64,000 bases of DNA. Origin: an uncultured Prevotellaceae bacterium. Lineage in GTDB: Bacteria > Bacteroidota > Bacteroidia > Bacteroidales > Muribaculaceae. Position numbers and translations under genes: made by a program. Shown here piece after piece: positions 1,291 through 24,982 of the stretch (position 1 is its first letter; each line of letters begins with the position of its first letter). Location of the stretch: the NCBI GenBank assembly GCA_900320055.1, contig ONQS01000010.1, positions 1 to 64,000 of the forward strand, given 5' to 3'. The notes under the pieces are model-generated. The model was not told the DNA's origin, ran no database searches, and was given only the letters and a program-made list of their open reading frames with translations.

Positions 1291-1333
1291 GTACATCATA
1301 ACACCGTTGGGTGCGGTAAATACAACTCATCAC

Positions 1334-11646: not shown

Positions 11647-11650
11647 GGAA

Positions 11651-12670
11651 TTACAATTTCCAACCAGGTTTGAAAAACGGCTCCTGAGCGGTAAACCGCG
11701 GTGCATAAGTCTTGAGCGAGGCAATCACTGGCCACATAATTAATATTGTGAGCGCAAACACGATCAAAGAGAGGTCCACACCGGGCTGCATGCCACCGCG
11801 CAGGATGAACCATGAGCGGATGTACTGCATGACCACCATGTGAGTGCCTAAAATAATAAGCGAATAACGGCCGTAATGGCACATAACCGGAATGCGGGGC
11901 AGCGGCTTGCAAGCCCAGAAGAGTGCCAAGATAGCGACAAAGGGCAATGCATAGAGTTTCCAATAGGCAGGCAAAATCATGAAGTGGAGATTCATGAATT
12001 CGCTGAGATAATAGATGGGCAAAGCCACCAATGCCAATACCAACACTCCCCACTTGTCATACCGTGACGGCTCCAGAGCACCTAAGCGCTTCATCCCCCA
12101 CCCCAACACAAAATAGGGAAACGCCACCAGCGAGGTGTCGAGCATGAGGGGCAATTCCACCCGATGATTGCCCAGCCAGCATCCTGCTACCGAAATCATC
12201 ACCGTGGCTATGAGCAACGCCCACACAGGCCTGATGCAGCGGTGCAGCACATAGAAGATGATGTTGACCCAGAACAGGCTCAAGAGAAACCACAGCGGTG
12301 TGGTCATCGGCCAGTATCGCAGATAGAACGGTTCAAGCAGATGCACCGGACTGATGTCGATGGGCTCTGCCCCCATCAGGCAGCGGACCCCATATTCTGC
12401 CAGTTGCACGCCATAGGCCAATACCACAAAGAAAACAAACGGCACAAGGATGTTATTGACCTTGCGCCGCGTGAAATCGGCAAAGCCGCCATAGAGTTTA
12501 AAGAAGATGCCCGATATAAAGTAGTACATCGGCAGGCGGAATGACTGCAATGCATTGTTGAGATTGGGCGCCAAGTAGTTAAAAAACTCATGGTCGATAT
12601 GGTACATCACAATGAGCATGATGCACAGACACTTCATAAAGTCGATGTAGGCAATACGCTGACGAGACAT
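11651..12670 (-). CDS. Acyltransferase 3 family membrane protein
   Basis: 339-residue protein with about ten hydrophobic segments. It opens with RIAYIDFMKCLCIMLIVMYHIDHEF, the acyltransferase_3 (PF01757) signature of an Asp early in the first helix and a His at its end. Members O-acylate sugars, peptidoglycan or lipids using an acyl donor at the membrane. It is placed 46 bases after an ACP and in line with FkbH and KASIII genes, so it is a good candidate for moving the locus-specific acyl group onto the polysaccharide. That assignment is inference from position. A second protein of the family is at 41856-42881. Confidence 0.82.
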   Translation of the reverse strand: MSRQRIAYIDFMKCLCIMLIVMYHIDHEFFNYLAPNLNNALQSFRLPMYYFISGIFFKLYGGFADFTRRKVNNILVPFVFFVVLAYGVQLAEYGVRCLMGAEPIDISPVHLLEPFYLRYWPMTTPLWFLLSLFWVNIIFYVLHRCIRPVWALLIATVMISVAGCWLGNHRVELPLMLDTSLVAFPYFVLGWGMKRLGALEPSRYDKWGVLVLALVALPIYYLSEFMNLHFMILPAYWKLYALPFVAILALFWACKPLPRIPVMCHYGRYSLIILGTHMVVMQYIRSWFILRGGMQPGVDLSLIVFALTILIMWPVIASLKTYAPRFTAQEPFFKPGWKL

Positions 12671-12716
12671 AGCGAAGTGTGCGGCGACCGTGAGAGAGAG
12701 GATGTTATAAAAATAA

Positions 12717-12944
12717 TTACTTCACCTTGGACTCCAGCATGGCGATCACCCGCGAGAAGTCGGTCATCTCGGCGATCTCCTCGGGCTCGAGTTCGATGTC
12801 GAAGGCATCTTCCAGTTCAGACGCTAGAGTCAGGTGATGCAACGAGTCCCACTTGGGGCAATTCTTCTGCGAAGCGTCGGTTGAGACCGTATCCATCTCA
12901 AAGACCTCGCGCATAATCTCTAAAACCTTATCGTTCAGATTCAT
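12717..12944 (-). CDS. Acyl carrier protein (WDS type)
   Basis: 75-residue acidic four-helix protein with KWDSLHHL; Ser34 is the phosphopantetheine attachment site in a canonical Asp-Ser context. Its ATG overlaps the stop of the FkbH-like gene by 4 bases (ATGA), which indicates translational coupling and makes it the likely acceptor of the group handled by FkbH. One of four ACPs in the locus; this one and the ACP at 23640 are of the WDS class, the other two of the WSS class. Confidence 0.9.
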   Translation of the reverse strand: MNLNDKVLEIMREVFEMDTVSTDASQKNCPKWDSLHHLTLASELEDAFDIELEPEEIAEMTDFSRVIAMLESKVK

Positions 12945-14533
12945 TTCACTTTGATATTATAGCAATTATTGACTTGGTACACACTGTCGAGCGACAGTTG
13001 ATAGTGCTTGGCGCCCTCGGCATCGGTCGTTGAGCAGGCCATGCCCATGCGGTCATAGAAGTCGGCCGTCTGTCCATTTTTGGCCGTGGGCAGGTAGTCG
13101 GCGGTGATCCTGCGGTAGCCATCCAGGCGCAACAGGTTGAACACCGTCTTGACAAAGGCCTCCTCGATGCCTTTGCCCAATACCCGGCAACTGAGCAGCA
13201 AGGAGTCGATATGGAGCGTCAGGTCATCGACAGGCTTCAGGCAGATGGTGCCCGTGATACCACTATCGCCAAAGCGGTCGCTCACATTCACGCAATAGAT
13301 CATCCAGCCCTGATCGATGAACTGTCGCAGTTGGTCCTGGGTGTAACGGCGTGTGGTGAGGTTGAACTGGTTGGTCTTCTGCGTCATCTGTGCAATGCGG
13401 GGCAGATTATGCTCGTCGGCCGGCATGATATCCAACTCGATGTCAAGGCTATACAGATAACTCTCGAGATCGGCAAAATGCGCCTGCTCGGCATGGCGTA
13501 ACGCGTTGGCACGGTATTGCTCCGTTTTGGACCGGTCCTCGTCGGTCACCACATAGGCTCGGAAAAAACGCTCAACCAGATCCCGATAGAAGGGCATGAG
13601 CAGATAAGGCTTATCGGGAAAATCGGGCACTTCGACCTGCGGCAACAGTTGCTTGATGAGTTCGCGCTCGGCAGGGTTATCGTCGACAAAGACCATGCTG
13701 TCGAGTCCGATGTTGAGTTCCTCGGCCATCGATTGCAGATTGGAAGCCTTGTCTAGCCAGTTGATGCGCATGGCGGCAAAATGCTCCTGCTTGAGCACCA
13801 TGGCCGGGTTGGCATTCCAGGCCTCGAGCACGTCGTCCAGATTGTTCTTGCTGCACACCGCCAGTATCACGCCTTGTCGAGTGAGTTGCAGCAGCGAGCG
13901 CTGCCAGATGGTGTAGGCCTTGCCGGGATAATCCCCGCCCAATTGTATGCCATCGGGGCCATCCTCGCCGAGCACTCCCCCCCACAGCGTGTTGTCCAAG
14001 TCCAGAACGAGACACTTCTTGCGCTTAAGATCCAACTGATCTTGGATGCGGCTCCACCAGATGTGGAAATCGCTGGCCAACTTAGGGTTGAGCAGCGTCT
14101 GTGACATGAGGTAGAACTTCCAGTTGATCAGCACATCGGTCCCATATCGTGACGTGAACTCTTCCAAGTCGACCCACTTGACGTTGGAGCGCTGACGCGA
14201 CAACTGTGCCACATGGCTGTTAAAACCCATGATGGCCTCTTGCAAAGCAGTGTCTGCCCCCGTGAGCCTAAGACGGGCCAAGTCTACCATCGAAAAGATG
14301 ATGAAGGGCTTGCGCTCGTCGGCGCTGTTGAGCACGAGATCCAGTTTACCACAATAGGACTCCACCTCCTGCGCCAGTTGCTGGACATCGGCATTGACAG
14401 GCACCTGATAGAGCCAGATGTAGCGGTCAACGTCGTGAGGCACGACACTGATATCGTCATAACCCGAGTAGGTCATGCCTTCATAGCCCAGAAAAGGCTC
14501 TACCGTGTGGTTGCGAAAGACAAAGGTCGCCAT
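12941..14533 (-). CDS. FkbH-like HAD-IIIC enzyme with C-terminal GNAT domain
   Basis: 530 residues. The HAD catalytic motif LVLDLDNTLWGGVLGEDG places Asp178, Asp180 and Thr182 as the DxDxT loop; VCSKNN and FVDDNPAERE supply motifs II and III. A SGNH-like region precedes it, and the C-terminal about 150 residues resemble a GNAT acyltransferase fold (VNVSDRFGDSGITG). Known family members load glyceryl units from 1,3-bisphosphoglycerate onto an ACP for tetronate or methoxymalonyl-ACP synthesis. Here it is coupled to an ACP gene and lies near KASIII genes, supporting glyceryl-ACP or a related C3 unit as product (inference). Confidence 0.88.
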   Translation of the reverse strand: MATFVFRNHTVEPFLGYEGMTYSGYDDISVVPHDVDRYIWLYQVPVNADVQQLAQEVESYCGKLDLVLNSADERKPFIIFSMVDLARLRLTGADTALQEAIMGFNSHVAQLSRQRSNVKWVDLEEFTSRYGTDVLINWKFYLMSQTLLNPKLASDFHIWWSRIQDQLDLKRKKCLVLDLDNTLWGGVLGEDGPDGIQLGGDYPGKAYTIWQRSLLQLTRQGVILAVCSKNNLDDVLEAWNANPAMVLKQEHFAAMRINWLDKASNLQSMAEELNIGLDSMVFVDDNPAERELIKQLLPQVEVPDFPDKPYLLMPFYRDLVERFFRAYVVTDEDRSKTEQYRANALRHAEQAHFADLESYLYSLDIELDIMPADEHNLPRIAQMTQKTNQFNLTTRRYTQDQLRQFIDQGWMIYCVNVSDRFGDSGITGTICLKPVDDLTLHIDSLLLSCRVLGKGIEEAFVKTVFNLLRLDGYRRITADYLPTAKNGQTADFYDRMGMACSTTDAEGAKHYQLSLDSVYQVNNCYNIKVK

Positions 14534-14534
14534 G

Positions 14535-15542
14535 TTATTTCCGAATTGCTCGATACACTTTACTTAACAGATTCCACAAGCGGGGACGCATCATCAGGCC
14601 ATGGATGACTTTCCACTTGGCCCCATGATAATTGGCCTCGGGTCCCACACATGGGAAGGGATACAGTCCATGCTGCCTGATACGTTCCAACACCTCTTGC
14701 ACATAACCGCACTCAAGCGCCTTGGTCATGGCGAAGTAGAGATAGACGTTTCTCATACCGGCCACACTGGCAGGCGGAGTCGTGCCGGTTGCGGATTCGA
14801 ACTGAGACATAGCCTCGTTGATCGACGCGGCGGCCTCGACCTGCCCCATCATGCGGTGGCGCAGATGCTTCGGATCGGGGTTATGCATGAAACTATCGCC
14901 ACGGCTCACGTAGCAATAAGCGATGACATCCTCGTAGGCGACCCGATCGGCATTGAGCATAATGCGCGACATGAAGGGACCGTCCTCACAGATGCGCAAT
15001 TCGGGATCGAAGCGGTAACCTGTCCTGTTCAAGTAGTCAGCACTCAACAGATAACGCCACGCATAGGGAATCATCGGATGGTTACTCAGGTACTCTGGGC
15101 CAGTCGCAGGCGAGGTCGAAGGGAAATCGGCCGCCGATGCCGCGGGTATGGGATTGCCGTCGATGTCCACATTCCTGTGGTTGAACAGGAGTATATCAAG
15201 GTTCTGCTCTATAGCACGGCGCAACAGAGCACCAATCTTCCCCACCTCGAGATAGTCGTCGCTGTCGACAAATTGCAGATAACGCCCATGCGCATGCTTA
15301 ATGCCCGTGTTGCGAGCGGCACTCAAGCCAGCATTGGGCTGAGAAATCAGGCGCACCTGGGGATGGGTCGCGATAAAGCCCTCGATGATCGAGCGGCTAT
15401 CGTCGGGAGAGCCGTCATCGACCACAACGACCTCATAATCGTCGACATCAATGCCCTGATCGACAAGCGTCTCCAAGCAGCGCAGCACATAAGGGGCCGT
15501 GTTATAGACAGGAACGATGTATGATAGTAGCATGTGCTTCAT
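14535..15542 (-). CDS. Glycosyltransferase family 2
   Basis: GT-A fold glycosyltransferase, 335 residues from the ATG at 15542. LSYIVPVYNTAPYV opens the fold, VVVDDGSPDDS binds nucleotide, and FVDSDDYLE is the DxD-type metal motif near residue 95. The ATG overlaps the VOC stop by one base (TGATG), a translational-coupling arrangement. An in-frame TTG one codon upstream is unlikely to be used. It sits between the VOC and FkbH genes inside the acyl block, so it may transfer the sugar that receives the unusual acyl group; acceptor and donor are not visible. Confidence 0.88.
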   Translation of the reverse strand: MKHMLLSYIVPVYNTAPYVLRCLETLVDQGIDVDDYEVVVVDDGSPDDSRSIIEGFIATHPQVRLISQPNAGLSAARNTGIKHAHGRYLQFVDSDDYLEVGKIGALLRRAIEQNLDILLFNHRNVDIDGNPIPAASAADFPSTSPATGPEYLSNHPMIPYAWRYLLSADYLNRTGYRFDPELRICEDGPFMSRIMLNADRVAYEDVIAYCYVSRGDSFMHNPDPKHLRHRMMGQVEAAASINEAMSQFESATGTTPPASVAGMRNVYLYFAMTKALECGYVQEVLERIRQHGLYPFPCVGPEANYHGAKWKVIHGLMMRPRLWNLLSKVYRAIRK

Positions 15543-15949
15543 CAATGATGGGCCTCGACCAACTCGATGAGGCCATTATCTTTCTTGAACAAAAAGGCGA
15601 CATGCCTGCCATCGATGGCGCAAGCGGGCACAGGCCCGCTCACCAGCAAGAAGCGCTGGCGGCGCAACGACGTGATGGCCATGGCCATGTCATCGACCTC
15701 ATAACAGAGATGATAGGGCGTCACGCCGACGGTATCGAGCGTTCGAGCCACGGGACTCTGTTCATCCATCGGCTCGAGTAATTCCAGTCGCGGTGCCCCC
15801 TCCATGTCCAGGAAACACACACGCACGTGCTGGATGGGGTCATCGGTCACAGCCGAAGCCTTATACCCCATATCGAGATAGAAGGCCCGCGTGCGCTCAA
15901 TGTTGCGGCAAGCGATGCCGATATGATGGAATTGCAGCAGAGCGTTCAT
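15542..15949 (-). CDS. VOC-family protein, methylmalonyl-CoA epimerase-like
   Basis: 135 residues with the paired beta-alpha-beta-beta-beta modules of the vicinal oxygen chelate superfamily: FHHIGIACRNIERTRAFY at the start (metal His near residue 8-9) and TPYHLCYEVDDM in the second half (metal His near residue 79), then NGLIELVEA. The nearest well-known pattern is methylmalonyl-CoA epimerase, but glyoxalases share it. Positioned directly after KASIII and before GT2, so an epimerase or isomerase acting on an acyl-ACP/CoA intermediate is the preferred inference. Confidence 0.8.
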   Translation of the reverse strand: MNALLQFHHIGIACRNIERTRAFYLDMGYKASAVTDDPIQHVRVCFLDMEGAPRLELLEPMDEQSPVARTLDTVGVTPYHLCYEVDDMAMAITSLRRQRFLLVSGPVPACAIDGRHVAFLFKKDNGLIELVEAHH

Positions 15950-15954
15950 CAGCG

Positions 15955-17004
15955 TCAGTATTCAATCACAGGCGAAACTTTGCAGTCGCGCATGGTCATC
16001 ATAGCCGCCCCCCAACTCAAGCCAGCGCCAAAGGCGCTCATCACCATCTTGTGCTCGCCGCTGAGTGCGCCCGCCAACTCGCTAGAGATGGTCAGAGGCA
16101 CCGATGCACTGCTCGTGTTACCATACTTGCCGATGCAATAAGGCACCCGGTCGGGCGAAATCTTGAGTTTTTTCACAAAGAAGTCCATCATGAAGCGATT
16201 GGCCTGATGAAAGACCAGATAGTCGATGTCCTCGATGGCCGTGTCGGTCTCCTTGAGCAGTCGCTTGATGCTCTTGGGCACCTTGCTGATGGCAAAATTA
16301 AACACGTCCATACCATCCATAAACACCTCAAGATCGCTTCGGATGTTACCGTCCTCACGCTCACGCTCGACACAAGAATCGGGCGTGACGGGATGCCGCA
16401 TGCCGGCATGGATCTTGAGTGTGTCCTCGCCGCTGCCATCGGTATAAAGCATAAACGTAGAGTCGCCGTAGTCACCCTTCTCGACCAGCGTAGCCGTGCC
16501 AGCATCGCCATAGAGCGGCCAATCGACCTTGTCGTGGCGATTGACAATCTTGGAGAAGGTCTCACCATCAAGCAACAACACGCGGTTGATGCCAGGCATC
16601 GAGGCATAGGCAAAGGCGGTGCTCAAAGCAAACAGGTAGCCCGAGCAACCCAGTGAGATATCAAAACACAAGGTTTCCTTGCCCAGTCCCAAACGATGCT
16701 GCAACAGACAAGAGGTGGCTGGAATGCGATAATCAGCCGTCTGACTCATGAACAACAGCACATCAATGCACTCCGGCTCGATGCCATTGTCCTCGAACAA
16801 TCGCAAAGCGGCCTTGTAACACAGATCGCTGGCGGTTACATCGTCTGAAGCGATACGCCGCTCTTGAATGCCAATGTTGTTGATTGTTTTTTCTATTTCT
16901 TCCTCCGGAATGAGATAGCCCAGGTCCTTATTGTAAACGACCTGCTGAGGCACGCATGCGCTCATTGCCTTAATCCCCACCCCCTGAAATGATATTGTAG
17001 CCAT
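15955..17004 (-). CDS. 3-oxoacyl-ACP synthase III (KASIII/FabH-like), copy 1
   Basis: 349-residue thiolase-fold condensing enzyme. The triad is intact: Cys120 in ISLGCSGYL, His266 in VFHQANR and Asn296 in KYGNTSSA. LYGDAGTATLVEK is the conserved GDGA-like segment. This is not the housekeeping fabH context; it follows an ACP gene and precedes VOC, GT2 and FkbH. The locus holds a second KASIII (21115). FabH-like enzymes in tetronate pathways join a glyceryl-ACP to a beta-ketoacyl unit, and others make branched starter units or esters; which applies here cannot be read from sequence. Confidence 0.9.
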   Translation of the reverse strand: MATISFQGVGIKAMSACVPQQVVYNKDLGYLIPEEEIEKTINNIGIQERRIASDDVTASDLCYKAALRLFEDNGIEPECIDVLLFMSQTADYRIPATSCLLQHRLGLGKETLCFDISLGCSGYLFALSTAFAYASMPGINRVLLLDGETFSKIVNRHDKVDWPLYGDAGTATLVEKGDYGDSTFMLYTDGSGEDTLKIHAGMRHPVTPDSCVEREREDGNIRSDLEVFMDGMDVFNFAISKVPKSIKRLLKETDTAIEDIDYLVFHQANRFMMDFFVKKLKISPDRVPYCIGKYGNTSSASVPLTISSELAGALSGEHKMVMSAFGAGLSWGAAMMTMRDCKVSPVIEY

Positions 17005-17112
17005 ATACCAAACGTTTAACCGCTAGCGGGTCATATGCAGTCTTACAAACAAACACATAACAATCAGCCGCCAGCAAATGCTGCGGCCAATAATTATGCC
17101 TTCACTCTGTTA

Positions 17113-17346
17113 TCACTCAACCCGTGACTTGACAATGTTATACAGGTCCTCGACCGTGTTGCTGCCGCGGATATCATCTCCACGGAATTCCACATCATAC
17201 TCCTCGTCGATCATAGCAATGACCGATAAGGCGAGCAGTGACGACCATTCTTCCAAATCCTTGAATCGAGTGGTAGCCGATATAATGTTAGGGTCTGTTT
17301 CATCAAACAGATCCGAAAAATACTCTATGAACTGATTCAAATTCAT
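17113..17346 (-). CDS. Acyl carrier protein (WSS type), copy 1
   Basis: 77 residues, acidic, with LEEWSSLLAL. Ser36 aligns with the phosphopantetheine serine, but the usual preceding Asp is Ser35. Hand alignment to the ACP at 23879 gives 40 identities in 77 positions, so the two are duplicates. It is the first gene after the promoter boxes at 17363-17400 and precedes KASIII copy 1 by 108 bases. Confidence 0.85.
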   Translation of the reverse strand: MNLNQFIEYFSDLFDETDPNIISATTRFKDLEEWSSLLALSVIAMIDEEYDVEFRGDDIRGSNTVEDLYNIVKSRVE

Positions 17347-17362
17347 TATTGCTTTAATAACG

Positions 17363-17400
17363 CAAAAGTAATGCCGTTATTTCAACGGGGTGCAAAATTA
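17363..17400 (-). promoter_or_regulatory. Tandem -7 boxes before the ACP/KASIII/FkbH unit
   Basis: On the minus strand TAATTTTG (17400-17393) and TACTTTTG (17370-17363) both match TAnnTTTG, 54 and 24 bases before the ACP ATG. The TTTG at 17396-17393 lies 22 bases from the proximal box. Either or both could initiate the third transcription unit of the locus. Confidence 0.5.
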
Positions 17401-17479
17401 CATAAAAAACTTTAAAAAAGCATTACTTCAAGCAATATTTGAATTCAAAATGACCGATTGCAGTACAGGGAAAGGCCCT

Positions 17480-17500
17480 TGCTCCCCTAACGGGGAAGCA
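17480..17500 (-). terminator. Possible terminator after the PglD-like gene
   Basis: A stem of TGCT(T)CCCC against GGGGAGCA with a one-base bulge and a 4-base loop follows the stop at 17510 in the minus direction. It lacks a clear U-tract. It would separate the second and third transcription units. Confidence 0.35.
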
Positions 17501-17509
17501 TGAGAAGCC

Positions 17510-18151
17510 TCAGAAATCAAACTTCCGTGCAGGCACACCCAGATAGGTGGCATTGTCCCTAGGCTGCGTCATGAGAACGCTGTTGGCACCCAATGTGACA
17601 CCGTTACCAATCGTCATTCCCTGCAGCACTACACTGGCAACGCCCAGCAGATTGTTGTCGCCGATGGTGATTCCGCCCGACAGATGTGCCGCCGGCATGA
17701 GACCATTGAAATTGCCGATGACATTGTCGTGTCCTACCACCACATGGTCGTTGATCAAGTTAAAGTCTCCGATGGTGACGTCACACGAGATCATGCAGTC
17801 GTTTTGGATAATATTACCTTCACCCATCCTGAATGTCTGCTCGTCGACCATAAACAGTGAGGGATCAATGAGGTTGGGAAATGAGATGTTTGCACGGGTA
17901 ATGCTCTCGCGGATGCGGCGCACCACCTTGTTATCGTTGATGGCAATGGCAATGGCCAAATCCTCGTCGATGCTCAACAGGCACTCCAACCCGCCGAGCA
18001 CCTTGCCATATCTCGAGACAGGAGTGCCTGCCGGCTTAGAGTCGTCAAAAAAACCGATCAATTGCCAATCGCCGCCATTGGCGTTGATTCTGTCGATCAG
18101 GCAAGCGACTTCCTTACCAAATCCGCCAGCGCCATAGATTGCAATATTCAT
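17510..18151 (-). CDS. PglD/NeuD-like sugar O/N-acyltransferase (left-handed beta-helix)
   Basis: 213 residues. N-terminal Rossmann-like domain (MNIAIYGAGGFGKEVACLID) followed by hexapeptide repeats of a left-handed beta-helix (IIQNDCMISCDVTIGDFNLIND and onward), ending in TYLGVPARKFDF. This is the PglD/NeuD architecture that transfers an acetyl or other acyl group to a UDP-amino sugar. It lies 41 bases after a DegT-type aminotransferase, the classic PglE-PglD pairing. The C-terminal half of the fusion protein at 25005 is its close paralogue, so the locus holds at least three domains of this type. Confidence 0.88.
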   Translation of the reverse strand: MNIAIYGAGGFGKEVACLIDRINANGGDWQLIGFFDDSKPAGTPVSRYGKVLGGLECLLSIDEDLAIAIAINDNKVVRRIRESITRANISFPNLIDPSLFMVDEQTFRMGEGNIIQNDCMISCDVTIGDFNLINDHVVVGHDNVIGNFNGLMPAAHLSGGITIGDNNLLGVASVVLQGMTIGNGVTLGANSVLMTQPRDNATYLGVPARKFDF

Positions 18152-18192
18152 AATCTTGCTATTCTAATTTTGGTTAATAATCCTCAAGTAAA

Positions 18193-19332
18193 TCATTTGC
18201 AGCAAGCGATGATCTCGCGAGCCACACGCTCGACGTCCTCATCACTGACCCAAGGTCCACTGGGCAGGCACAATCCCATCGAGAACAAGTCCTCGCTTAC
18301 ACCATTGACATAGGCAGGAGCATCGGCAAACACGGGTTGGGTGTGCATCGGTTTCCACAACGGACGCGACTCGATGTTGCAGGCATCAAGATGCAGCCTT
18401 ACGGTCTCGTAGTCTGTACCGGTCTTCTGGGGGTCAATGAGAATGGTGTTGAGCCAATAGTTGCTGTCGGAACGCTCGTCGATATTGACGTGGACATCGA
18501 TGCCTTCAATGTCAGAGAAGAGTTCCACATACCTGTCACACAAGTGCCTGTGATGAGCCAGATGCTCATCAAGCACCGTCATCTGACCCCGCCCGATGCC
18601 GGCACAGATGTTGCTCATGCGATAGTTGTAACCGATCTCCTTGTGAAGGTAGTAAGGCACTGGTTCGCGCGACTGGGTGGCATAGAACATGGTTTTTTTC
18701 TTCATCTGCTCACTTGAGCAGATCAGGCCACCGCCACCACTGGTTGTAATCATCTTGTTGCCGTTGAAACTCATGATTCCGAAATCGCCGAATGTGCCAC
18801 ACAACTGGCCACGATAACGCGAGCCGAAGGCTTCGGCCGAGTCTTCAATCACAGGAATCTCGTAATGCCGTGCGACCTCCATGATGTCGTCGATCTTGGC
18901 TGGCATGCCGTAGAGATAGACGGGTATGATGGCCTTAGGCTTGCGGCCTGTCTTGGCAATGCGGTCCTTGATGGCCTCTTCAAGCAGGTTGGGGTCGATA
19001 TTCCACGTATCCCGCTCGCTATCGACAAACACAGGAGTCGCCCCCTGATAGACCACAGGATTGGCACTTGCCGAGAACGTCATTGACTGGCAGATCACCT
19101 CGTCGCCCCGGGTCACGCCCAGGTTGACCAGCGCCAGATGAATCGCAGCCGTACCAGAACAGAGGGCCACCACATGCTTGCCCTGTCCGCACAAGCGCTC
19201 AAGGTCCTGTTCAAACGCGTTGACATTAGGTCCCAGAGGCACCACCCAATTGGTATCGAATGCCTCCTGGATATATTTCATTTCTTGGCCACTCATGTGA
19301 GCCAAACAAAGCAGTATTCTATCGTTAGCCAT
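18193..19332 (-). CDS. DegT/DnrJ/EryC1/StrS aminotransferase
   Basis: 379 residues from the ATG at 19332 (a TTG two codons upstream is less likely). PLP-dependent sugar aminotransferase: CSGTAAIHLAL binds the cofactor phosphate, VIEDSAEAFGS contains the Asp that contacts the PLP nitrogen, and FNGNKMITTSGGGGL carries Lys193, the Schiff-base lysine. Length is normal. Family members such as PglE convert UDP-4-keto sugars to 4-amino sugars. With the PglD-like gene directly downstream it probably makes an N-acylated amino sugar. No UDP-GlcNAc 4,6-dehydratase is visible in the window, so its 4-keto substrate must come from elsewhere. Confidence 0.92.
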   Translation of the reverse strand: MANDRILLCLAHMSGQEMKYIQEAFDTNWVVPLGPNVNAFEQDLERLCGQGKHVVALCSGTAAIHLALVNLGVTRGDEVICQSMTFSASANPVVYQGATPVFVDSERDTWNIDPNLLEEAIKDRIAKTGRKPKAIIPVYLYGMPAKIDDIMEVARHYEIPVIEDSAEAFGSRYRGQLCGTFGDFGIMSFNGNKMITTSGGGGLICSSEQMKKKTMFYATQSREPVPYYLHKEIGYNYRMSNICAGIGRGQMTVLDEHLAHHRHLCDRYVELFSDIEGIDVHVNIDERSDSNYWLNTILIDPQKTGTDYETVRLHLDACNIESRPLWKPMHTQPVFADAPAYVNGVSEDLFSMGLCLPSGPWVSDEDVERVAREIIACCK

Positions 19333-19342
19333 AAACAACTAT

Positions 19343-19936
19343 TTATATTAATTCTGAACCATTTACAGATTGCGAGGGATGGCCAGGACAGACTTGGCGT
19401 CCCTGCAGCAATTGTGCGATTGTCTGGAGGCTTTGTGCCGCCAGCCGCTTGTCGGAGTGAGGGAAATTGGTAACCACCCTAACTCCAGGGATATAACTGT
19501 CGCCCGTAAACAGGGCATTATCGACCAACCATGATACACAGCAAGGGCTATGGCCTGGCGTGTAGACAGCCTGGGCTGAGACCTGGTCAAACAGCCTCAC
19601 ACTGGTACCGTCGGGCACAACCCTGACACACTCGGGACGGGCCAGCACGAAGGGTTCTTCGTGATATCTCGAGAAGTTCCATTTGTCATCGGCCAGTCCG
19701 CGCTTTCCGTCCTCGTTAGTATAAATCAAAGCGTCAGGGAAGCGATCGAGCAGGCTGTTGAGGCCATAGATGTGGTCAAAATGGGCATGAGTGAGCAAGA
19801 CGCCACACACCTGCCCCTTGACAAGCGGGATAATCTGTTCGATGTCGCCACAATCCACAATCCATGTAGCACCGTCCTGGGTGAGGACATAACTGCAGGA
19901 GTTAAAGACAGAATTGACGACTTGACTGATGACCAT
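19343..19936 (-). CDS. Metallo-beta-lactamase fold hydrolase
   Basis: 197 residues from the ATG at 19936; a GTG 18 codons upstream is unlikely. THAHFDH (His50, His52, Asp54, His55) is the complete MBL metal motif, with PGHSP and FTGDS supplying the remaining His and bridging Asp. The shape is that of glyoxalase II-like thioester hydrolases, though lactonases share it. Located between the aminotransferase and the ATP-grasp gene inside the acyl block, so hydrolysis or editing of an acyl-ACP or acyl-CoA thioester is a reasonable guess. Confidence 0.85.
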   Translation of the reverse strand: MVISQVVNSVFNSCSYVLTQDGATWIVDCGDIEQIIPLVKGQVCGVLLTHAHFDHIYGLNSLLDRFPDALIYTNEDGKRGLADDKWNFSRYHEEPFVLARPECVRVVPDGTSVRLFDQVSAQAVYTPGHSPCCVSWLVDNALFTGDSYIPGVRVVTNFPHSDKRLAAQSLQTIAQLLQGRQVCPGHPSQSVNGSELI

Positions 19937-19999
19937 TGCTCGCTCGTCTAAATATATTATACTAACGGAAAAACCAGGTAAAAATTGCACCGATTCCGC

Positions 20000-21100
20000 T
20001 TATTGCATGTGCAGATAGAAAGGCATGCCCTTGTCAAAAGTCTTCCTGAACGACTGCATGCGCACACATTCGACCCGACGTGCACGCTCAATCACCTCGT
20101 CGAGAAAATCACCAAACATGGGGCCAGCCATCATCTGCGGTCCCTCGACACTGGGCACGAGATTGAACTCGATGAGCAAGGGTTGTCCATCAGGCAGGAC
20201 CGTCACATCCCACCCCACAAAATCAAAATAGGGCAAGCGCTGGTGCAGTCGCTTAAGCGTTTCGACCACACGAGAATACTCAGGTATGACCAGGTCTGAG
20301 ACACCGGTCTCGCGCTGCAATGACGATACCTGCATGCTCTTGAACCTGAAGACTCTGTCATCCACACGGCCATCCTCATGAATGAGACAAGTGCCCCCAC
20401 CCTGCGACACATTATCCTTGATAGCGCCCTTGCCGCCGAAACGCATGTGCGCAAAAGGATATAAGAACTCGAAGGTGCCGTCTTGACGGCGGTAAGTGTA
20501 GAGGCGCATCGAGTTGAGCGAGGTGGGATTGACACGCTGCAGATCGGGATGCTGGACAACCTTGCGCTGAATGATAAAATTGATGCCGTAGTGTGCAAAA
20601 AGAGCCACGAGCGCATCCTTGCCGAAATCCCGGATTTGCTCCACGCCCTCGCCATTACAAGTCTCGACTGTGGGCTTGATGATGAGTTCACCGCCAGCGC
20701 TAATGACAGCAGCGACGGCATCGCCCAAGGGCACCTCCTCGCCGCCGACGTAGTAGTGACCATGTATGTTCTTGACAATGGTCTCGGGTTGTTTGATGGC
20801 AGGGAAGAGTTCGCTGTAGATGTTCTTATCCAGATAGGCATCCTTAAAGTCATGCCGGTTGAGCGCGGGAATGACGTAGAAGTAGTACAGGTCCATCGAC
20901 AGATAACGGTCGCTATGGATGCCGTTGAGGCGAGAGAAATAGTCGTCAAACATCATCGAGACCTTGAAACCGTGCTGCTGATAGTATAGAGACAACTCAC
21001 GCTTGTGAGCCTTATAGTCAAAGTTCTCGGCCATGACATGGGACTTGAAATACCAGTCACCCCAGTAATACTCCTTGTTGCTGTTGATGAATTGAGCCAT
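20000..21100 (-). CDS. ATP-grasp enzyme of the sugar-transfer-associated type
   Basis: 366 residues from the ATG at 21100 (MAQFINSNKEYYWGDWYF); the extra upstream open frame overlaps the KASIII gene and has no homology character. LIIKPTVETCNGEGV is the ATP-binding lysine/glycine loop, NSMRLYTYR follows, and LLIEFNLVPSVEG supplies the Mg-binding Glu and Asn of ATP-grasp ligases. The overall pattern matches the ATPgrasp_ST group found with polysaccharide genes. Such enzymes form amide-type bonds between a carboxylate and an amine, so linking an acyl or amino acid to an amino sugar is plausible (inference). Confidence 0.82.
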   Translation of the reverse strand: MAQFINSNKEYYWGDWYFKSHVMAENFDYKAHKRELSLYYQQHGFKVSMMFDDYFSRLNGIHSDRYLSMDLYYFYVIPALNRHDFKDAYLDKNIYSELFPAIKQPETIVKNIHGHYYVGGEEVPLGDAVAAVISAGGELIIKPTVETCNGEGVEQIRDFGKDALVALFAHYGINFIIQRKVVQHPDLQRVNPTSLNSMRLYTYRRQDGTFEFLYPFAHMRFGGKGAIKDNVSQGGGTCLIHEDGRVDDRVFRFKSMQVSSLQRETGVSDLVIPEYSRVVETLKRLHQRLPYFDFVGWDVTVLPDGQPLLIEFNLVPSVEGPQMMAGPMFGDFLDEVIERARRVECVRMQSFRKTFDKGMPFYLHMQ

Positions 21101-21114
21101 CGGCAAAGGTAGAA

Positions 21115-22176
21115 TTAATAGGTTATCATATCGCTGATCGTCACATCGCCGGCATAGAATTCCATGCTTGCCCAAGCCAGTCCCACACCGAAGCCACAAG
21201 CCAGGCAGTGACGCTCGGGTCCTGATAACTGCTCGCGGCACCGCGATACCATGGTCAGCGGAATTGAGGCACTGGTGACATTACCGTACTCCTCGAGGCA
21301 ATAGGGGGTCTTCTCTGCCGGAATCTTAACCGACTTCCTGATTTTTTCATCTATAAACTTGTTGGCCTGATGCAGAAGCAAGAGGTCGACACTGTCCACG
21401 TCGATGTTGAAGGTGGCGATGAGTTCCTTGAGCGAGCGGGGCGGTTGCTTGATGGCAAAGCCGAAGACGTCCATACCGTTGACAATCATATCAATGCCAC
21501 GGCGATAAACACCCGGAGCGACCTCTTTCTCCTCGAGGGCTTCGGCAGTGACCGGGTTGCGCATGCCTCCATAGGGAGCCCACACAGCGTCATAGCCACT
21601 ACCATCCACGCCATACATGAAGTTCATGGACTTGGAGCGCTCTGGATCGTAGACTAATGCGGTGGCAGTGGCGGCATCGCCAAAGAGCGGTCGCACAGCC
21701 GTGTCGCGCTGGTTGCGGTTGCGCGTGTTGGTCTCGGCAGCAACCAGAATGGCGCGCTTGAAGGTGCCATGCGACATGAGCGACGAGACGATGCTCATGC
21801 CATAGACCCATCCCGAACATCCAAACGGCAGGTCGAACACACAACAGTCGTTGCGCAACTTCAGACGATCCTGCAGCACGCATGCCGTCTGCGGGGCGAT
21901 AAAGTCGCGTGAGGTGCAGACATAGGCAAAGCAGTCCACCGTCTGCGGCTCCCAGCCTAGGTCTTCGAGCAACTGGTTGACAGCCTTGACAGTAAGGTCA
22001 GATGCCGTGGTTTGCTCATCGACCTTGTGATGTCGCTCGATACCAGTCGAGGCAATCACCTTGAGCGCATCGTTCTCATCCTTGTAGATGGGCAGCGTGC
22101 GGTTGTCCTCGACCGTTGCGGGCACGCAGGCACTCATGCCCGCTATACGCACATTATTGATTGTTAATTGTGACAT
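21115..22176 (-). CDS. 3-oxoacyl-ACP synthase III (KASIII/FabH-like), copy 2
   Basis: 353 residues with an intact condensing triad: Cys120 in LPFGCSGWV, His269 in LLHQANK and Asn299 in EYGNVTSA. LFGDAATATALVYD is the conserved central segment. It shares the opening pattern GMSACVPA and general layout with copy 1 but is well diverged, so the two probably act on different substrates. Its start lies one base from the stop of the acyl ligase gene, so the ligase, ACP and KASIII are probably made together. Confidence 0.9.
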   Translation of the reverse strand: MSQLTINNVRIAGMSACVPATVEDNRTLPIYKDENDALKVIASTGIERHHKVDEQTTASDLTVKAVNQLLEDLGWEPQTVDCFAYVCTSRDFIAPQTACVLQDRLKLRNDCCVFDLPFGCSGWVYGMSIVSSLMSHGTFKRAILVAAETNTRNRNQRDTAVRPLFGDAATATALVYDPERSKSMNFMYGVDGSGYDAVWAPYGGMRNPVTAEALEEKEVAPGVYRRGIDMIVNGMDVFGFAIKQPPRSLKELIATFNIDVDSVDLLLLHQANKFIDEKIRKSVKIPAEKTPYCLEEYGNVTSASIPLTMVSRCREQLSGPERHCLACGFGVGLAWASMEFYAGDVTISDMITY

Positions 22177-22177
22177 A

Positions 22178-23647
22178 TTATTGTTGTAGTTTAAGTCGTT
22201 GGATTTTACCAGACGCCGTGCGCGGAATCTTGTCGATCCACTCCCACTCGACGGGAATCTCGTGAGGGGGCAGAATGCCTATCAGACCCTGCTTGACCCG
22301 TTCGATCGCAGGCTGGTTGTCGCCACGCTGCAGATAGGCTTTAGGCACTTCGCCCAAGACACCTTTGGGATCCGGTATAGCGACACACGCGCAATCTGTT
22401 ATGCCAAGCGACCTGATGGCTTGCTCGATGGTAGCCGGACTGACTTTCTCACCACCGATGTTGATAAGTTCCTTTTTGCGTCCCGTGAGATAGAAAAAGC
22501 CACGAGCATCACGGTGTCCCCAATCGCCGGTACGGAACCAGTCGCCATGGAATGCATCCTGATTGTCGGCGTCGAGGAAGTAGGAACGCGTCACCATATT
22601 GCCCCGCACACAGATTTCGCCATCCTCGCCATCGGGTAACTGCCGGCCTGCCTCGTCGAGGACAATCGCCTGCACCTGATCGGAGGCAGGACGGCCCACG
22701 GTATCAAGATTGTCGGCACAGGCATGAAACTCGCAGAACATGGCGCGCGAGGCTTCTGTCAGGCCGTAATGCATGCACAAACGGGTCGTTGGGAAAAGTT
22801 CCATCAGCAGGCGCTTGTCGTCAACCGACAAAGCCGCGCTTCCCATCTCGATATACCTCAACTGGTCGGCAAAACGGGCTATCCGCCTGCCACTGAATCG
22901 CTTGATATATTGCCACACGGCAGGAACCATGCCAAATCCTGTCACGCGCTCGGTCTCTAAGACATGGAAGAATGACTTAAGGTTGGCAAAGTTACTGACC
23001 AGAACAAGCGTCGCTCCAGCCATGAGCACACAGCGCAAACGCCCCAAACCAAAGGAATGGCTCAAGGGCAGGGCCAGGGCTTCAACGTCGCTGGCATCGG
23101 TTCCGATAAAGCCGTTGGTATTGCGGGCCGACCCGGCTATATTGGCGTGCGAGAGGCAAACCCCCTTGGGCGCGCCTGTGGTGCCTGTGGTAAACATCAC
23201 ATCGGCCACTGAATCGGTGCTGACTTGAGGAACGTGGATCGGTACAGCGCTGACATCGTCAGCAGCCAAGACGTCATGGAAAGATATGCAAGTCAAGCCC
23301 GGCAGAATGATGCCGTCGCCCAGCGCAATGGCCGGCGATGTCACCTTGCGGATATAATCAAGCCGCTCATTAGGTGATGAACTATCGACCACAACATTGA
23401 CCACGCCCAACAGATGCGCAGCAAAATAGAGGTAGATGAAGTCGGCCTCCTTGTTAGCGGCCAGCAGGATGCGGTCGCCAGGTTTGATGCCCTGTGACTG
23501 CAGAAACGCTGCCACGCGAAGGATGCGCTCTTGCAGTTGGGCATAACTAATACGTGCCTCCCCCGCAACCAGAGCGATTTTGCCTGGCGTAGAAGAGGCA
23601 TGTGTAAAGATGTCGCACAGCACAGGGCTGTGGGATGCGTTAATCAT
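22178..23647 (-). CDS. AMP-binding acyl-CoA/acyl-ACP synthetase
   Basis: 489-residue adenylate-forming enzyme. FTTGTTGAPKG at 152-162 is the P-loop, HYGLTEAS is motif A5, DWFRTGDWG carries the conserved Asp, and Lys481 in TASGKIQR is the catalytic lysine. Length matches free-standing acyl ligases without an attached carrier domain. Its start overlaps the ACP gene at 23640 by 8 bases, so the most likely reaction is ATP-dependent loading of a carboxylic acid onto that ACP. The acid itself cannot be identified. Confidence 0.9.
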   Translation of the reverse strand: MINASHSPVLCDIFTHASSTPGKIALVAGEARISYAQLQERILRVAAFLQSQGIKPGDRILLAANKEADFIYLYFAAHLLGVVNVVVDSSSPNERLDYIRKVTSPAIALGDGIILPGLTCISFHDVLAADDVSAVPIHVPQVSTDSVADVMFTTGTTGAPKGVCLSHANIAGSARNTNGFIGTDASDVEALALPLSHSFGLGRLRCVLMAGATLVLVSNFANLKSFFHVLETERVTGFGMVPAVWQYIKRFSGRRIARFADQLRYIEMGSAALSVDDKRLLMELFPTTRLCMHYGLTEASRAMFCEFHACADNLDTVGRPASDQVQAIVLDEAGRQLPDGEDGEICVRGNMVTRSYFLDADNQDAFHGDWFRTGDWGHRDARGFFYLTGRKKELINIGGEKVSPATIEQAIRSLGITDCACVAIPDPKGVLGEVPKAYLQRGDNQPAIERVKQGLIGILPPHEIPVEWEWIDKIPRTASGKIQRLKLQQ

Positions 23648-23870
23648 TTTTCAGCATAATGACCTCATCGACGATGGATTGGACCGAGGTCAAGTCAAAT
23701 AAGTCTTCGAGAGGGAACTCAACATCAAGTTCTTGCTCTATGGTGCTGATAATCGCCAGATTGCCCACCGAGTCCCACTCTGGGATGTCGCCCGATGAAA
23801 GTTGGTCGGTAACGACAGCGAGGTCGACATTCAGCACACGCGCTATGATTTCTCTAATCTGTGATTTCAC
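23640..23870 (-). CDS. Acyl carrier protein (WDS type), overlapping the acyl ligase
   Basis: 76 residues with PEWDSVGNL; Ser34 is the phosphopantetheine site. No ATG is available at the N terminus: the frame opens with GTG at 23870, 8 bases after the stop of the preceding ACP. Its 3' end overlaps the acyl ligase by 8 bases. Two adjacent ACP genes of different classes (WSS then WDS) are unusual and suggest that each serves a different enzyme. Confidence 0.85.
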   Translation of the reverse strand: MKSQIREIIARVLNVDLAVVTDQLSSGDIPEWDSVGNLAIISTIEQELDVEFPLEDLFDLTSVQSIVDEVIMLKND

Positions 23871-23878
23871 GATAGTGA

Positions 23879-24112
23879 TCAGTGCACTTGCTTCTCAACG
23901 ACATTGAACAAGTCCTGAATTGTCTCGGAATTGATGATATCATTGCCCTTGATAATCACGTCATATTCATCGTCGACCATGGCAATAATGGACAATGCAG
24001 TCAACGAGGACCACTCGTCCAACTGCTTGAACTTGGTTTCAGCGGTAAATACAGTCTCATCTGTATCGTCAAATTGCGAAGCAAAATTGTCGATAAAATC
24101 CTGAATATTCAT
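23879..24112 (-). CDS. Acyl carrier protein (WSS type), copy 2
   Basis: 77 residues from the ATG at 24112. LDEWSSLTAL places Ser36 at the phosphopantetheine position with Ser instead of Asp before it. It is the duplicate of the ACP at 17113 and, like it, is the first gene behind a promoter. The following GTG-start ACP is 8 bases away. Confidence 0.85.
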   Translation of the reverse strand: MNIQDFIDNFASQFDDTDETVFTAETKFKQLDEWSSLTALSIIAMVDDEYDVIIKGNDIINSETIQDLFNVVEKQVH

Positions 24113-24183
24113 CGTAATAATATATCCGTTATTCACTTATGGTTGTTTTAGTTGGAATTAGTAATCAAATTAATTCCAATGGG

Positions 24184-24229: not shown

Positions 24230-24982
24230 CTATATCGAAAAGCCGCCGTCGATGACCAAATCGTGTCCCGTCAGCCAGCACGAGGCGTCACTCAAGAGAT
24301 AGATGGCACCATTGGCGATATCGTCGGGCAAGCCATAGCGGCCCAAGGGGTATCGCTTGGCGTCCTCGGCCAACTGCTCCTCGGTGATCGTGCCACGGTG
24401 AATGAGAGGCGTGTCGACCATGCCGGGGCAGATGCTGTTGACGCGCACCTTGCGGGCGGCATACTCGCGGGCGGCATACTTCATGACGGAGTTGAGGGCG
24501 GCCTTGGAAGCGCCATAGACGCCATTGCCAGGCATGAAACTGTGGGTGCCGCCAATCGATGCGATGAGCACCACCGATCCCCCCTTGTTGAGCACTTTCT
24601 TCTTGTAAAGCAAGCGCAGCAACTCTACCGGCGCAAAGAAGTTGACGTCGAACATGCCGTCAAATTTCTCTCTAGAACCGAATTGCAGAGGCAGCGTTGT
24701 TGAATTGCCCGCACACAGCACAGCGCCATCCAGGGCCGGCATGGCTGCCACCAGGCGTTTCAGGTCGTCGGGATTGGTCAAGTCGGCAACCTCTTGTGAT
24801 TTCGCCCCGTTGGGCATCATGTCGCTGGTGCGCTGCAAGCGCTCGGCATTGCGGCCTGTAATCACCACATCAGCCCCCATGCGCGCGCAGGCCACTGCTG
24901 TTGCCTGACCGATGCCCGATGATGCTCCGGTCACCAGAATCGTCTTGTTCTCGAGCGAGAACGGATTAAAGACATTGTCCAT
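24230..24982 (-). CDS. Short-chain dehydrogenase/reductase (SDR)
   Basis: 250 residues from the ATG at 24982. TGASSGIGQ (18-26) is the nucleotide-binding turn, and Ser142, Tyr156 and Lys160 (YGASK) form the catalytic set of classical SDRs. CPGMVDTP and the C-terminal LVIDGG are typical of FabG-like members. The ATG is 22 bases past the stop of the double acetyltransferase, so both belong to the first transcription unit. Either a sugar ketone or a beta-ketoacyl-ACP is a possible substrate. With KASIII enzymes next door, beta-ketoacyl reduction is attractive but unproven. Confidence 0.88.
   Translation of the reverse strand: MDNVFNPFSLENKTILVTGASSGIGQATAVACARMGADVVITGRNAERLQRTSDMMPNGAKSQEVADLTNPDDLKRLVAAMPALDGAVLCAGNSTTLPLQFGSREKFDGMFDVNFFAPVELLRLLYKKKVLNKGGSVVLIASIGGTHSFMPGNGVYGASKAALNSVMKYAAREYAARKVRVNSICPGMVDTPLIHRGTITEEQLAEDAKRYPLGRYGLPDDIANGAIYLLSDASCWLTGHDLVIDGGFSI

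What the first reader, a model, noticed from the sequence alone, without database searches (positions are those of the whole stretch)
11651..24112. An ACP/KASIII/FkbH acyl-assembly module inside a surface-polysaccharide locus
Seen: four ACP genes, two KASIII enzymes with intact Cys-His-Asn triads, an acyl-adenylate ligase overlapping an ACP, an FkbH-like enzyme overlapping another ACP, a VOC epimerase-like protein, an MBL hydrolase, an ATP-grasp ligase and an acyltransferase. They are interleaved with an aminotransferase, a PglD-like enzyme and a GT2, downstream of Wzx, Wzy and PglC. Known: FkbH-like enzyme plus ACP plus FabH-like enzyme is the core of tetronate (glyceryl-ACP) pathways. Inference: the cluster builds an unusual acyl, possibly tetronate-like, group and transfers it to an amino sugar of the capsule or O-antigen.
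Basis: partly seen in the sequence, partly recalled or inferred. Interest (0 to 1): 0.87.

Follow-up and report, generated by a model that had tools for sequence, protein, structure and literature searches.

The report
FkbH-primed acyl line for capsule sugar
A surface-polysaccharide gene cluster of a bacterium that is probably a Bacteroidales carries a gene set, recurring in many related bacteria, for a small fatty-acid-style assembly line that is predicted to start from a three-carbon intermediate of sugar breakdown, would lengthen it into a short hydroxylated chain, and likely hangs that chain on an amino sugar of the cell coat.

Summary
The genes are there with intact motifs: four carrier proteins, two KASIII enzymes (Cys-His-Asn), FkbH, AMP ligase, VOC protein, MBL hydrolase, ATP-grasp, PglE-like aminotransferase. 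A scan with KASIII-1 alone finds FkbH within 3 kb in 77 of 80 kept loci, usually with VOC, two ACPs, SDR and PglD, often PglE/PglC. A distant family repeats the set (2 of 35 genomes). KASIII cassettes without FkbH (33 of 35) show no VOC and at most one ACP, and resemble the Flavobacterium psychrophilum O-antigen genes whose product is Qui2NAc4N-(3,5-dihydroxyhexanoyl). Reading: FkbH loads glyceryl (or similar) on one ACP, KASIII extends it with malonyl on another, SDR reduces, PglD forms an amide on a PglE-made 4-amino sugar, PglC puts that on the lipid carrier. A second unit (AMP ligase, ACP, KASIII, ACP) sits beside it; Parabacteroides carries that unit alone. Tetronate chemistry is not supported. 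Starter, product and every reaction are untested. New variant of a known kind.

The parts
26270..26887 (-). PglC-like initiating sugar-phosphate transferase
   Evidence: PF02397, 200 bits; next to PglD in many related loci
25005..26270 (-). Fused PglD-PglD: N-half canonical acetyl-CoA type (best PDB hit perosamine N-acetyltransferase), C-half of the class found in acyl cassettes
   Evidence: His in DHE (120) and GHD (347) motifs
24230..24982 (-). SDR ketoreductase (FabG-like); ORF opens to 25054, homologue lengths point to 24982
   Evidence: PF13561 183 bits; TGASSGIG, ASIGG, YGASK motifs; within 12 kb of KASIII-1 in 74 of 80 loci
23879..24136 (-). ACPd, partner carrier, WSS class
   Evidence: PF00550 18.1 bits, below cut-off; conserved class
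23640..23870 (-). ACPc, loader carrier, WDS class
   Evidence: PF00550 34.7 bits; WDS in 32 of 32 homologues
22178..23647 (-). AMP-dependent acyl ligase (predicted loader of ACPc)
   Evidence: PF00501 236 bits; overlaps ACPc by 8 bases
21115..22176 (-). KASIII-2 (KS2), Cys120-His269-Asn299
   Evidence: 19-row clade of second KASIIIs, support 100/100
20000..21100 (-). ATP-grasp, sugar-transfer-associated family
   Evidence: PF14397 89.9 bits; homologue lengths 366-368 aa
19343..19936 (-). Metallo-beta-lactamase-fold hydrolase (possible thioesterase)
   Evidence: PF00753 71.9 bits
18193..19338 (-). DegT aminotransferase, PglE-like
   Evidence: PF01041 314 bits; best PDB hit 1o61, 306 bits (that 1o61 is Campylobacter PglE is recalled)
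17510..18151 (-). PglD of the acyl-cassette class (predicted N-acyltransferase)
   Evidence: His of GHD at 140 aligns with the His-Asp of 4m98 and 4ea7
17113..17346 (-). ACPb, partner carrier, WSS class
   Evidence: PF00550 24.1 bits
15955..17004 (-). KASIII-1 (KS1), FkbH-linked, Cys120-His266-Asn296
   Evidence: 50-row clade, support 91/91
15542..15949 (-). VOC metalloprotein, epimerase-like
   Evidence: PF13669 80 bits; below the methylmalonyl-CoA epimerase cut-off (68.5 vs 114.95); H9, E56, H80, E129 invariant in 9 sequences (their role as metal ligands is recalled)
14535..15545 (-). GT2 glycosyltransferase inside the module
   Evidence: PF00535 115 bits
12941..14533 (-). FkbH-like enzyme (predicted glyceryl-ACP loader)
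   Evidence: TIGR01686 289.7 bits; DLDNT from 178, SKN from 228, DDNP from 284 and SCR from 448 invariant in 12 sequences; Cys227 is not invariant
12717..12944 (-). ACPa, loader carrier, WDS class, overlapping FkbH
   Evidence: PF00550 20.6 bits, just under cut-off; WDS 71, WNS 5 of 76 homologues
11651..12670 (-). AT3 membrane acyltransferase at the end of the locus (association with the module uncertain)
   Evidence: PF01757 105 bits; not found in L032/L064 (same contig by length), L048, L052, L065

Best explanation
The locus encodes the gene set of a two-unit, type II fatty-acid-synthase-like assembly line that likely makes short hydroxylated acyl chains on dedicated carrier proteins and is predicted to transfer them by an amide bond to the 4-amino group of a bacillosamine-type sugar, which would be the first sugar of a capsule or O-antigen repeat. 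Unit 1 (core, conserved): FkbH loads a C3 acid, most likely glyceryl from 1,3-bisphosphoglycerate, onto ACPa; KASIII-1 takes it and condenses it with malonyl on ACPb; the SDR reduces the beta-keto group (3,4,5-trihydroxypentanoyl if the starter is glyceryl); the VOC metalloprotein acts on the FkbH product, probably as an epimerase at C2. Unit 2 (optional): the AMP ligase loads another acid onto ACPc, and KASIII-2 extends it with malonyl on ACPd. PglE-like DegT, with a PglF-like dehydratase encoded elsewhere, makes the UDP-4-amino sugar; PglD of the cassette class acylates it; PglC puts it on the lipid carrier. Shown: gene content, order, intact motifs, co-conservation, two carrier classes. Inferred: every reaction, the starter and the product.
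For: A scan of genome contigs with KASIII-1 alone kept the best 80 of 463 loci. On the same strand: FkbH within 3 kb in 77 of 80, VOC within 2 kb in 73, ACPa 76 and ACPss 70 within 6 kb, SDR 74, cassette PglD 62, DegT 54, PglC 36 within 12 kb. Minimal cassette PglC-PglD-ACP-SDR-KASIII-VOC-FkbH-ACP-PglE in L030 and L033. Distant repeat (KASIII 35%, FkbH 38-39% identity) in 2 of 35 other genomes, both of one genus. The single PglD of FkbH cassettes is clearly of the class of PglDs/C-half in 23 of 26 loci, undecided in L023, L088, L113. In the other 33 of 35 KASIII cassettes no VOC and no ACPa belongs to the cassette (L221 and L222 seen over 3 kb only). F. psychrophilum: two ketoacyl-ACP synthases, ACP, ketoreductase, PglD-like acyltransferase, PglE/PglF, and an NMR-based 3,5-dihydroxyhexanamido sugar (PMC6519341). 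P. distasonis has unit 2 alone, L204: PglD-ACP-ACP-AMP ligase-KASIII-SDR. Partner ACPs lack Asp/Asn before the Ser in 25 of 27 clusters with a loader, in 3 of 22 without. PF02719 protein, 400 bits, on contig C56.
Against: No activity or polysaccharide has been measured. FkbH's substrate is taken from other pathways; lactyl or another starter is possible. KASIII-1 could prime with acetyl-CoA and FkbH's product be used elsewhere. The carrier signature has exceptions (L212 and L213 have Asp beside an FkbH; three single-carrier clusters have Ser). DegT was not found in 26 of 80 loci and the cassette PglD in 18 of 80 (short contigs explain some, not all). VOC is missing in 7 of 80 loci and in L023, and 24 of 29 FkbH loci of the phylum sample have no VOC within about 1.5 kb. 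L088 keeps ACPa without FkbH. Next to FkbH, the KASIIIs of L116 and L120 fall outside the KASIII-1 clade. Two acyl units but one aminotransferase: how the second chain is used is unclear; L053 and L086 keep both PglD copies without unit 2. Seeds of the scan all came from FkbH neighbours, so linkage is favoured among close relatives; of the 29 phylum-sample FkbH loci outside the window, only L137 and L139 (seen whole as L212, L213) proved to be in a KASIII cassette, and L129 (L217) has one about 5 kb away.
Confidence: 0.6

Rival explanations
1. Acetyl-primed F. psychrophilum-type line: the KASIIIs make 3-hydroxybutyryl or 3,5-dihydroxyhexanoyl from acetyl-CoA, and FkbH/ACPa/VOC serve a separate glyceryl transfer in the same locus.
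For: KASIII cassettes without FkbH are the rule in the phylum sample (33 of 35) and the F. psychrophilum product is known; FkbH with an ACP also occurs without KASIII, in 3 of 4 scanned same-family loci beside an MBOAT.
Against: KASIII-1 is nearly always close to FkbH (77 of 80) and the minimal cassettes L030 and L033 hold no separate acyltransferase for a second product between PglC and PglE.
Confidence: 0.22
2. KASIII-1 does not elongate: like CerJ-type KASIII homologues it only moves the FkbH-derived acyl group from ACPa to ACPb or to the sugar, giving a plain N-glyceroyl sugar.
For: N-glyceroyl sugars are known, e.g. Tannerella forsythia Pse5Am7Gra, whose glyceroyl gene 'remains elusive' (PMC6120980, passage). 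Acyl-transferring KASIIIs are known (recalled).
Against: Cys-His-Asn triads intact in both KASIIIs; an SDR, of little use without a beta-keto group, within 12 kb in 74 of 80 loci.
Confidence: 0.12
3. Tetronate-like ring formed from glyceryl-ACP and a beta-ketoacyl chain.
For: FkbH, ACP and FabH-type enzyme together.
Against: No Agg4/Agg5-like protein and no PKS among the 20 locus proteins scanned, and a ketoreductase in the set.
Confidence: 0.03

Closest known systems
Flavobacterium psychrophilum O-PS genes wfpC-wfpG with pglE/pglF (PMC6519341; abstract and passages seen)
   Same: ketoacyl-ACP synthases, ACP, ketoreductase, PglD-like acyltransferase, PglE; acyl chain amide-linked to C4 of a Qui2NAc4N
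   Different: no FkbH mentioned in the passages seen, one ACP named instead of four, no AMP ligase or VOC mentioned; its sequences were not compared here
Tetronate glycerate-utilisation operon (PMC7489565; passages seen)
   Same: FkbH-like enzyme, stand-alone ACP and FabH-type enzyme
   Different: no Agg4/Agg5 pair and no PKS found in the locus, ketoreductase present, lies in a Wzx/Wzy polysaccharide locus
Campylobacter jejuni flagellar glycosylation island with fkbH-domain gene cj1302 and 'epimerase' cj1301 (PMC7099621; one section and passages seen), di-O-methylglyceroyl pseudaminic acid (PMC3068675; abstract seen)
   Same: FkbH-domain and epimerase genes in a glycan locus; strains 12664 (cj1302 a pseudogene) and 12661 (cj1301 missing) lack the di-O-methylglyceroyl sugars that 11168 has
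   Different: nonulosonic acid on flagellin; the parts I read draw no such link, and the strains differ in other genes too; that fabH2 and ACP genes lie next to cj1302 is recalled, as is any kinship of cj1301 with VOC
Parabacteroides distasonis capsule records L204, L205
   Same: PglD, two ACPs (one WSS/YSS, one WDS), AMP ligase, KASIII, SDR, i.e. unit 2
   Different: no FkbH, VOC or ATP-grasp found; L205 has another gene order and two SDRs

Membership tests
F. psychrophilum-type N-acylation of Qui2NAc4N | ketoacyl-ACP synthase(s) with intact triad | tested here: met
F. psychrophilum-type N-acylation of Qui2NAc4N | dedicated ACP and ketoreductase in the locus | tested here: met
F. psychrophilum-type N-acylation of Qui2NAc4N | PglD-like acyltransferase and PglE-like aminotransferase in the locus | tested here: met
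F. psychrophilum-type N-acylation of Qui2NAc4N | PglF-type dehydratase | tested here: inconclusive
   none among the module proteins; a PF02719 protein with 400 bits on another contig of the own genome
F. psychrophilum-type N-acylation of Qui2NAc4N | acylamido-Qui2NAc in the polysaccharide | not testable with these tools
   needs NMR/MS
F. psychrophilum-type N-acylation of Qui2NAc4N | sequence kinship of the enzymes with WfpC-WfpG | not tested
Tetronate (glycerate-utilisation operon) | FkbH-like enzyme with stand-alone ACP | tested here: met
   ACPa overlaps FkbH
Tetronate (glycerate-utilisation operon) | FabH-like tetronate-forming enzyme | tested here: inconclusive
   KASIII present, but no tetronate-type reference was compared
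Tetronate (glycerate-utilisation operon) | Agg4-type acyltransferase and Agg5-type dehydratase | tested here: not met
   no such domain among the 20 locus proteins scanned; the domains expected for Agg4/Agg5 are recalled
Methoxymalonyl-ACP operon | two dehydrogenases and an O-methyltransferase beside FkbH and ACP | tested here: not met
   one SDR, no methyltransferase among the 20 proteins scanned; operon content
FkbH family | TIGR01686 over cut-off with HAD DxDxT and the Cys of SCR | tested here: met
FkbH family | loads glyceryl from 1,3-bisphosphoglycerate on ACP | not testable with these tools
   needs an enzyme assay
CerJ-type acyl-transferring KASIII | Asp in place of the triad Asn (recalled) | tested here: not met
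   Asn296 and Asn299

The most novel reading that the evidence does not exclude
A self-contained, swappable acyl-assembly cassette in which a glycolytic intermediate is turned by FkbH into the starter of a mini fatty-acid synthase, and two classes of carrier protein (Asp-Ser loader, Ser-Ser partner) keep starter and extender apart; it makes sugar-like polyhydroxyacyl chains for the first sugar of bacterial surface polysaccharides, and the window joins an FkbH-started and an AMP-ligase-started cassette in one locus to give a doubly unusual coat.
Probability: 0.4. Interest if true: 0.75.

Novelty: new variant of a known kind. Interest (0 to 1): 0.62.

Why it matters
It gives a concrete, testable gene set for unusual N-acyl groups on bacterial surface sugars, ties FkbH enzymes (known from antibiotics) to polysaccharides, and offers a candidate lead on the open question of how glyceroyl groups of Tannerella and Campylobacter glycans are made. 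The loader/partner carrier signature, if it holds, would let one read from sequence whether such a cassette is loader-started or acetyl-started.

Tried and rejected
Tetronate and methoxymalonyl readings set aside for missing genes. VOC as the cell's methylmalonyl-CoA epimerase rejected: a true one lies on contig C35 (143 bits, over cut-off) while the VOC scores 67.8. A viral-contig scan with KASIII-2 found no relative. FkbH on plasmids (119 records) mostly leads to Sinorhizobium (40) and Streptomyces (37) records; the Niveispirillum and Subdoligranulum regions added little. Structure prediction of the ATP-grasp from a single sequence failed (mean pLDDT 34.8) and was dropped; by sequence its only PDB matches are three weak ones (E about 0.03) to an unrelated phosphoesterase. 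Papers: (FkbH, acyl carrier protein, O-antigen) found 0; (viosamine flagellin glycan terms) 0; one search listed 25 of 286, one of them with FkbH (a gene-cluster software paper); on Campylobacter gene names listed 3, not opened; one search listed 15 of 45, none with HAD-IIIC; one search was badly put (24,945 papers, 10 listed, none with FkbH); (FkbH and polysaccharide) found 3, of which I opened only the Campylobacter one, the others being natural-product papers by title. So 'FkbH-KASIII-PglD cassettes not found in print' rests in an open-licence library. PMC6388019 and PMC7874193 were seen in passages only and not used for the argument. The first carrier-motif count (Asp/Asn in 1 of 26 against 13 of 15 clusters) used 20 of the 35 loci; adding the other 15 changed it to 2 of 27 against 19 of 22 and brought the L212/L213 exceptions.


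Full report
1. What is there. The window lies at G000:C37:1-64000 of a 2.63-Mb, 73-contig genome. From 41235 down to 11651 the genes of the polysaccharide locus run on the - strand: a Wzx-like protein (below Pfam cut-off), glycosyltransferase-region genes that I named by eye only, Wzy/EpsG, PglC, then the module. The own genome has one further KASIII, on contig C51, so both window KASIIIs are extra.

2. The module is kept together. In 198 genomes of the same family FkbH occurs in 17, the own included (15 over cut-off). Seventeen stretches of up to 20 kb from the 16 others (L022-L038) show the full order of the window in L029, L031 and L032; a form without ACPd-ACPc-AMP ligase-KASIII-2-ATP-grasp and without the separate PglDs in L025; the minimal cassette in L030 and L033; the same without VOC in L023; a two-KASIII form in L027 and, without VOC and PglE, in L035; FkbH-VOC-ACPa without KASIII in L024; FkbH without KASIII in L022, L026, L028 and L034; and weak, unrelated-looking matches in L036-L038. 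A scan with a KASIII-1 alignment alone (A3) gave 463 relatives, best 80 kept. On the same strand as KASIII-1 in those 80: FkbH 77 (3 kb), VOC 73 (2 kb), ACPa 76 and ACPss 70 (6 kb), SDR 74, cassette PglD 62, DegT 54, KASIII-2-like 38, PglC 36, AMP ligase 32 (12 kb). For the 66 with more than 2 kb upstream and 4 kb downstream: FkbH 64, ACPa 65, ACPss 65, SDR 64, VOC 59, PglD 56, DegT 51. The three without FkbH are L088 (ACPa kept), L106 and the short L090. Carriers include named Bergeyella, Chryseobacterium, Flavobacterium and Prevotella strains and MAGs labelled Treponema, Opitutia and Sedimentibacter.

3. Two units. A tree of 74 KASIIIs (all rows over 300 aa from 7 full-type loci and from L075-L120, the window's two and the own FabH) puts KASIII-1 in a 50-row clade (91/91) and KASIII-2 in a 19-row clade (100/100) with the second KASIII of loci of the order ACP-KASIII-SDR-KASIII-VOC-FkbH-ACP (the outgroup branch is long, and the FkbH-side KASIIIs of L116 and L120 fall outside the 50-row clade). 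So loci differ in one or two KASIIIs and in the loader: FkbH with ACPa, AMP ligase with ACPc, or none. Of the 80 loci, 45 have two KASIIIs, 32 of them with the AMP ligase. Two Parabacteroides distasonis records hold an AMP-ligase unit without FkbH.

4. Natural comparison without FkbH. KASIII relatives (alignment A1, E at most 1e-75) occur in 36 of 395 Bacteroidota genomes including the own. I fetched one stretch from each of the 35 others. In 33 the KASIII cassette has no FkbH, VOC or loader ACP; a single ACP beside the KASIII was found in 31 of the 33, an SDR in 28, a PglD over 50 bits in 22. Limits: L221 and L222 were seen over 3 kb only, and L217 has an FkbH with its own ACP about 5 kb away in what looks like another unit. 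In the two others, L212 and L213 (one genus), a distant FkbH (38-39%) and KASIII (35%) sit with PglD, two ACPs, SDR and PglC, L212 also with a VOC (34%): an independent or very old pairing of the same families. In the wider FkbH sample (33 of 395 genomes, 28 over cut-off) none of the 29 loci examined besides the window has a KASIII of this type within about 1.5 kb, and most have an ACP; L137 and L139 turned out to be L212 and L213. A VOC adjoins FkbH on the same strand in L125 and L135, on the other strand in L133, and weakly or cut off in L137 and L147; 24 of 29 have none. VOC with FkbH but without KASIII (L024, L028, L034; L125, L135) and its absence from the 33 FkbH-less cassettes are my reason to place it on the FkbH product. 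Its four presumed metal ligands are invariant in nine sequences.

5. Two carrier classes. Loader carriers keep the usual Asp before the pantetheine Ser (ACPc 32 of 32 WDS; ACPa 71 WDS and 5 WNS of 76). Partner carriers of cassettes with a loader have Asp or Asn there in 2 of 27 clusters (70% identity), those of cassettes without a loader in 19 of 22 (Fisher 2e-8; relatedness above the clusters is not removed). L212 and L213 are exceptions. I read the lost Asp as a device that keeps the extender carrier from being loaded by FkbH or the AMP ligase; this is inference.

6. The acceptor. DegT is closest to 1o61 (recalled to be PglE). In FkbH cassettes with one PglD it is clearly of the class of window PglDs and the C-half of the fused protein in 23 of 26 loci and undecided in L023, L088 and L113; the N-half is the acetyl-CoA type. 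PglC lies within 12 kb in 36 of 80 loci, directly beside PglD in many, so the acylated sugar is probably the first of the repeat. F. psychrophilum supplies the chemical precedent: D-Qui2NAc4N with a 3,5-dihydroxyhexanoyl amide, genes wfpC and wfpE for 3-ketoacyl-ACP synthases, wfpD ACP, wfpF reductase and wfpG a PglD homologue (PMC6519341: abstract and passages read; that route is itself predicted there).

7. The starter. [quoted passage not shown] In Campylobacter jejuni, strain 12664 has the fkbH-domain gene cj1302 as a pseudogene and 12661 lacks cj1301 ('epimerase'), and both lack the di-O-methylglyceroyl sugars seen in 11168 (PMC7099621, section 28 and passages); cj1295 is also required (PMC3068675, abstract) and the strains differ in other genes, so the correlation is only suggestive. 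For Tannerella forsythia the glyceroyl gene 'remains elusive' (PMC6120980, passage). Hence glyceryl is the likeliest starter; lactyl or others remain open.

8. Verdict. New variant of the F. psychrophilum kind, marked by the FkbH starter, paired carriers, and two units in one locus. The role of the ATP-grasp, MBL and AT3 proteins, and how the second acyl unit is used with one aminotransferase, are unsolved.

Noticed in passing
L022:1600-3063, L028:2695-4155, L034:3724-5151: In KASIII-less FkbH loci of the same family, FkbH and an ACP sit beside an MBOAT O-acyltransferase (3 of 4 scanned; the fourth, L026, has a Wzx-like protein), suggesting a second use of FkbH-loaded carriers: O-acylation.
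   Followed up: partly
L204, L205 (Parabacteroides distasonis records of 250,795 and 19,350 bases): Capsule loci lie on circular records called plasmids; these may be real mobile circles or assembly products.
   Followed up: no
window 34964-37387 and 37441-38697: Two neighbouring proteins share a similar N-terminal part of about 400 residues; the first is fused to a glycosyltransferase-like part (by eye).
   Followed up: no
window 1169-3142 and 51555-53864: Two similar secreted nuclease-like proteins with dockerin-like repeats flank the region (by eye).
   Followed up: no
window 10588-11724 and 62773-63897: Two similar endonuclease/exonuclease/phosphatase-type proteins, one at each end (by eye); unidentified neighbours of about 350, 477 and 505 aa follow the module in many related loci, so the locus seems to sit at a fixed site.
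   Followed up: no
L100, L118, L097: Cassette in MAGs labelled Treponema, Opitutia and Sedimentibacter: transfer between phyla or misbinned contigs.
   Followed up: no
C. jejuni strains in PMC7099621: Loss of fkbH-domain cj1302 or epimerase cj1301 goes with absence of di-O-methylglyceroyl pseudaminic acid in two strains; the parts of the paper I read do not connect them.
   Followed up: partly
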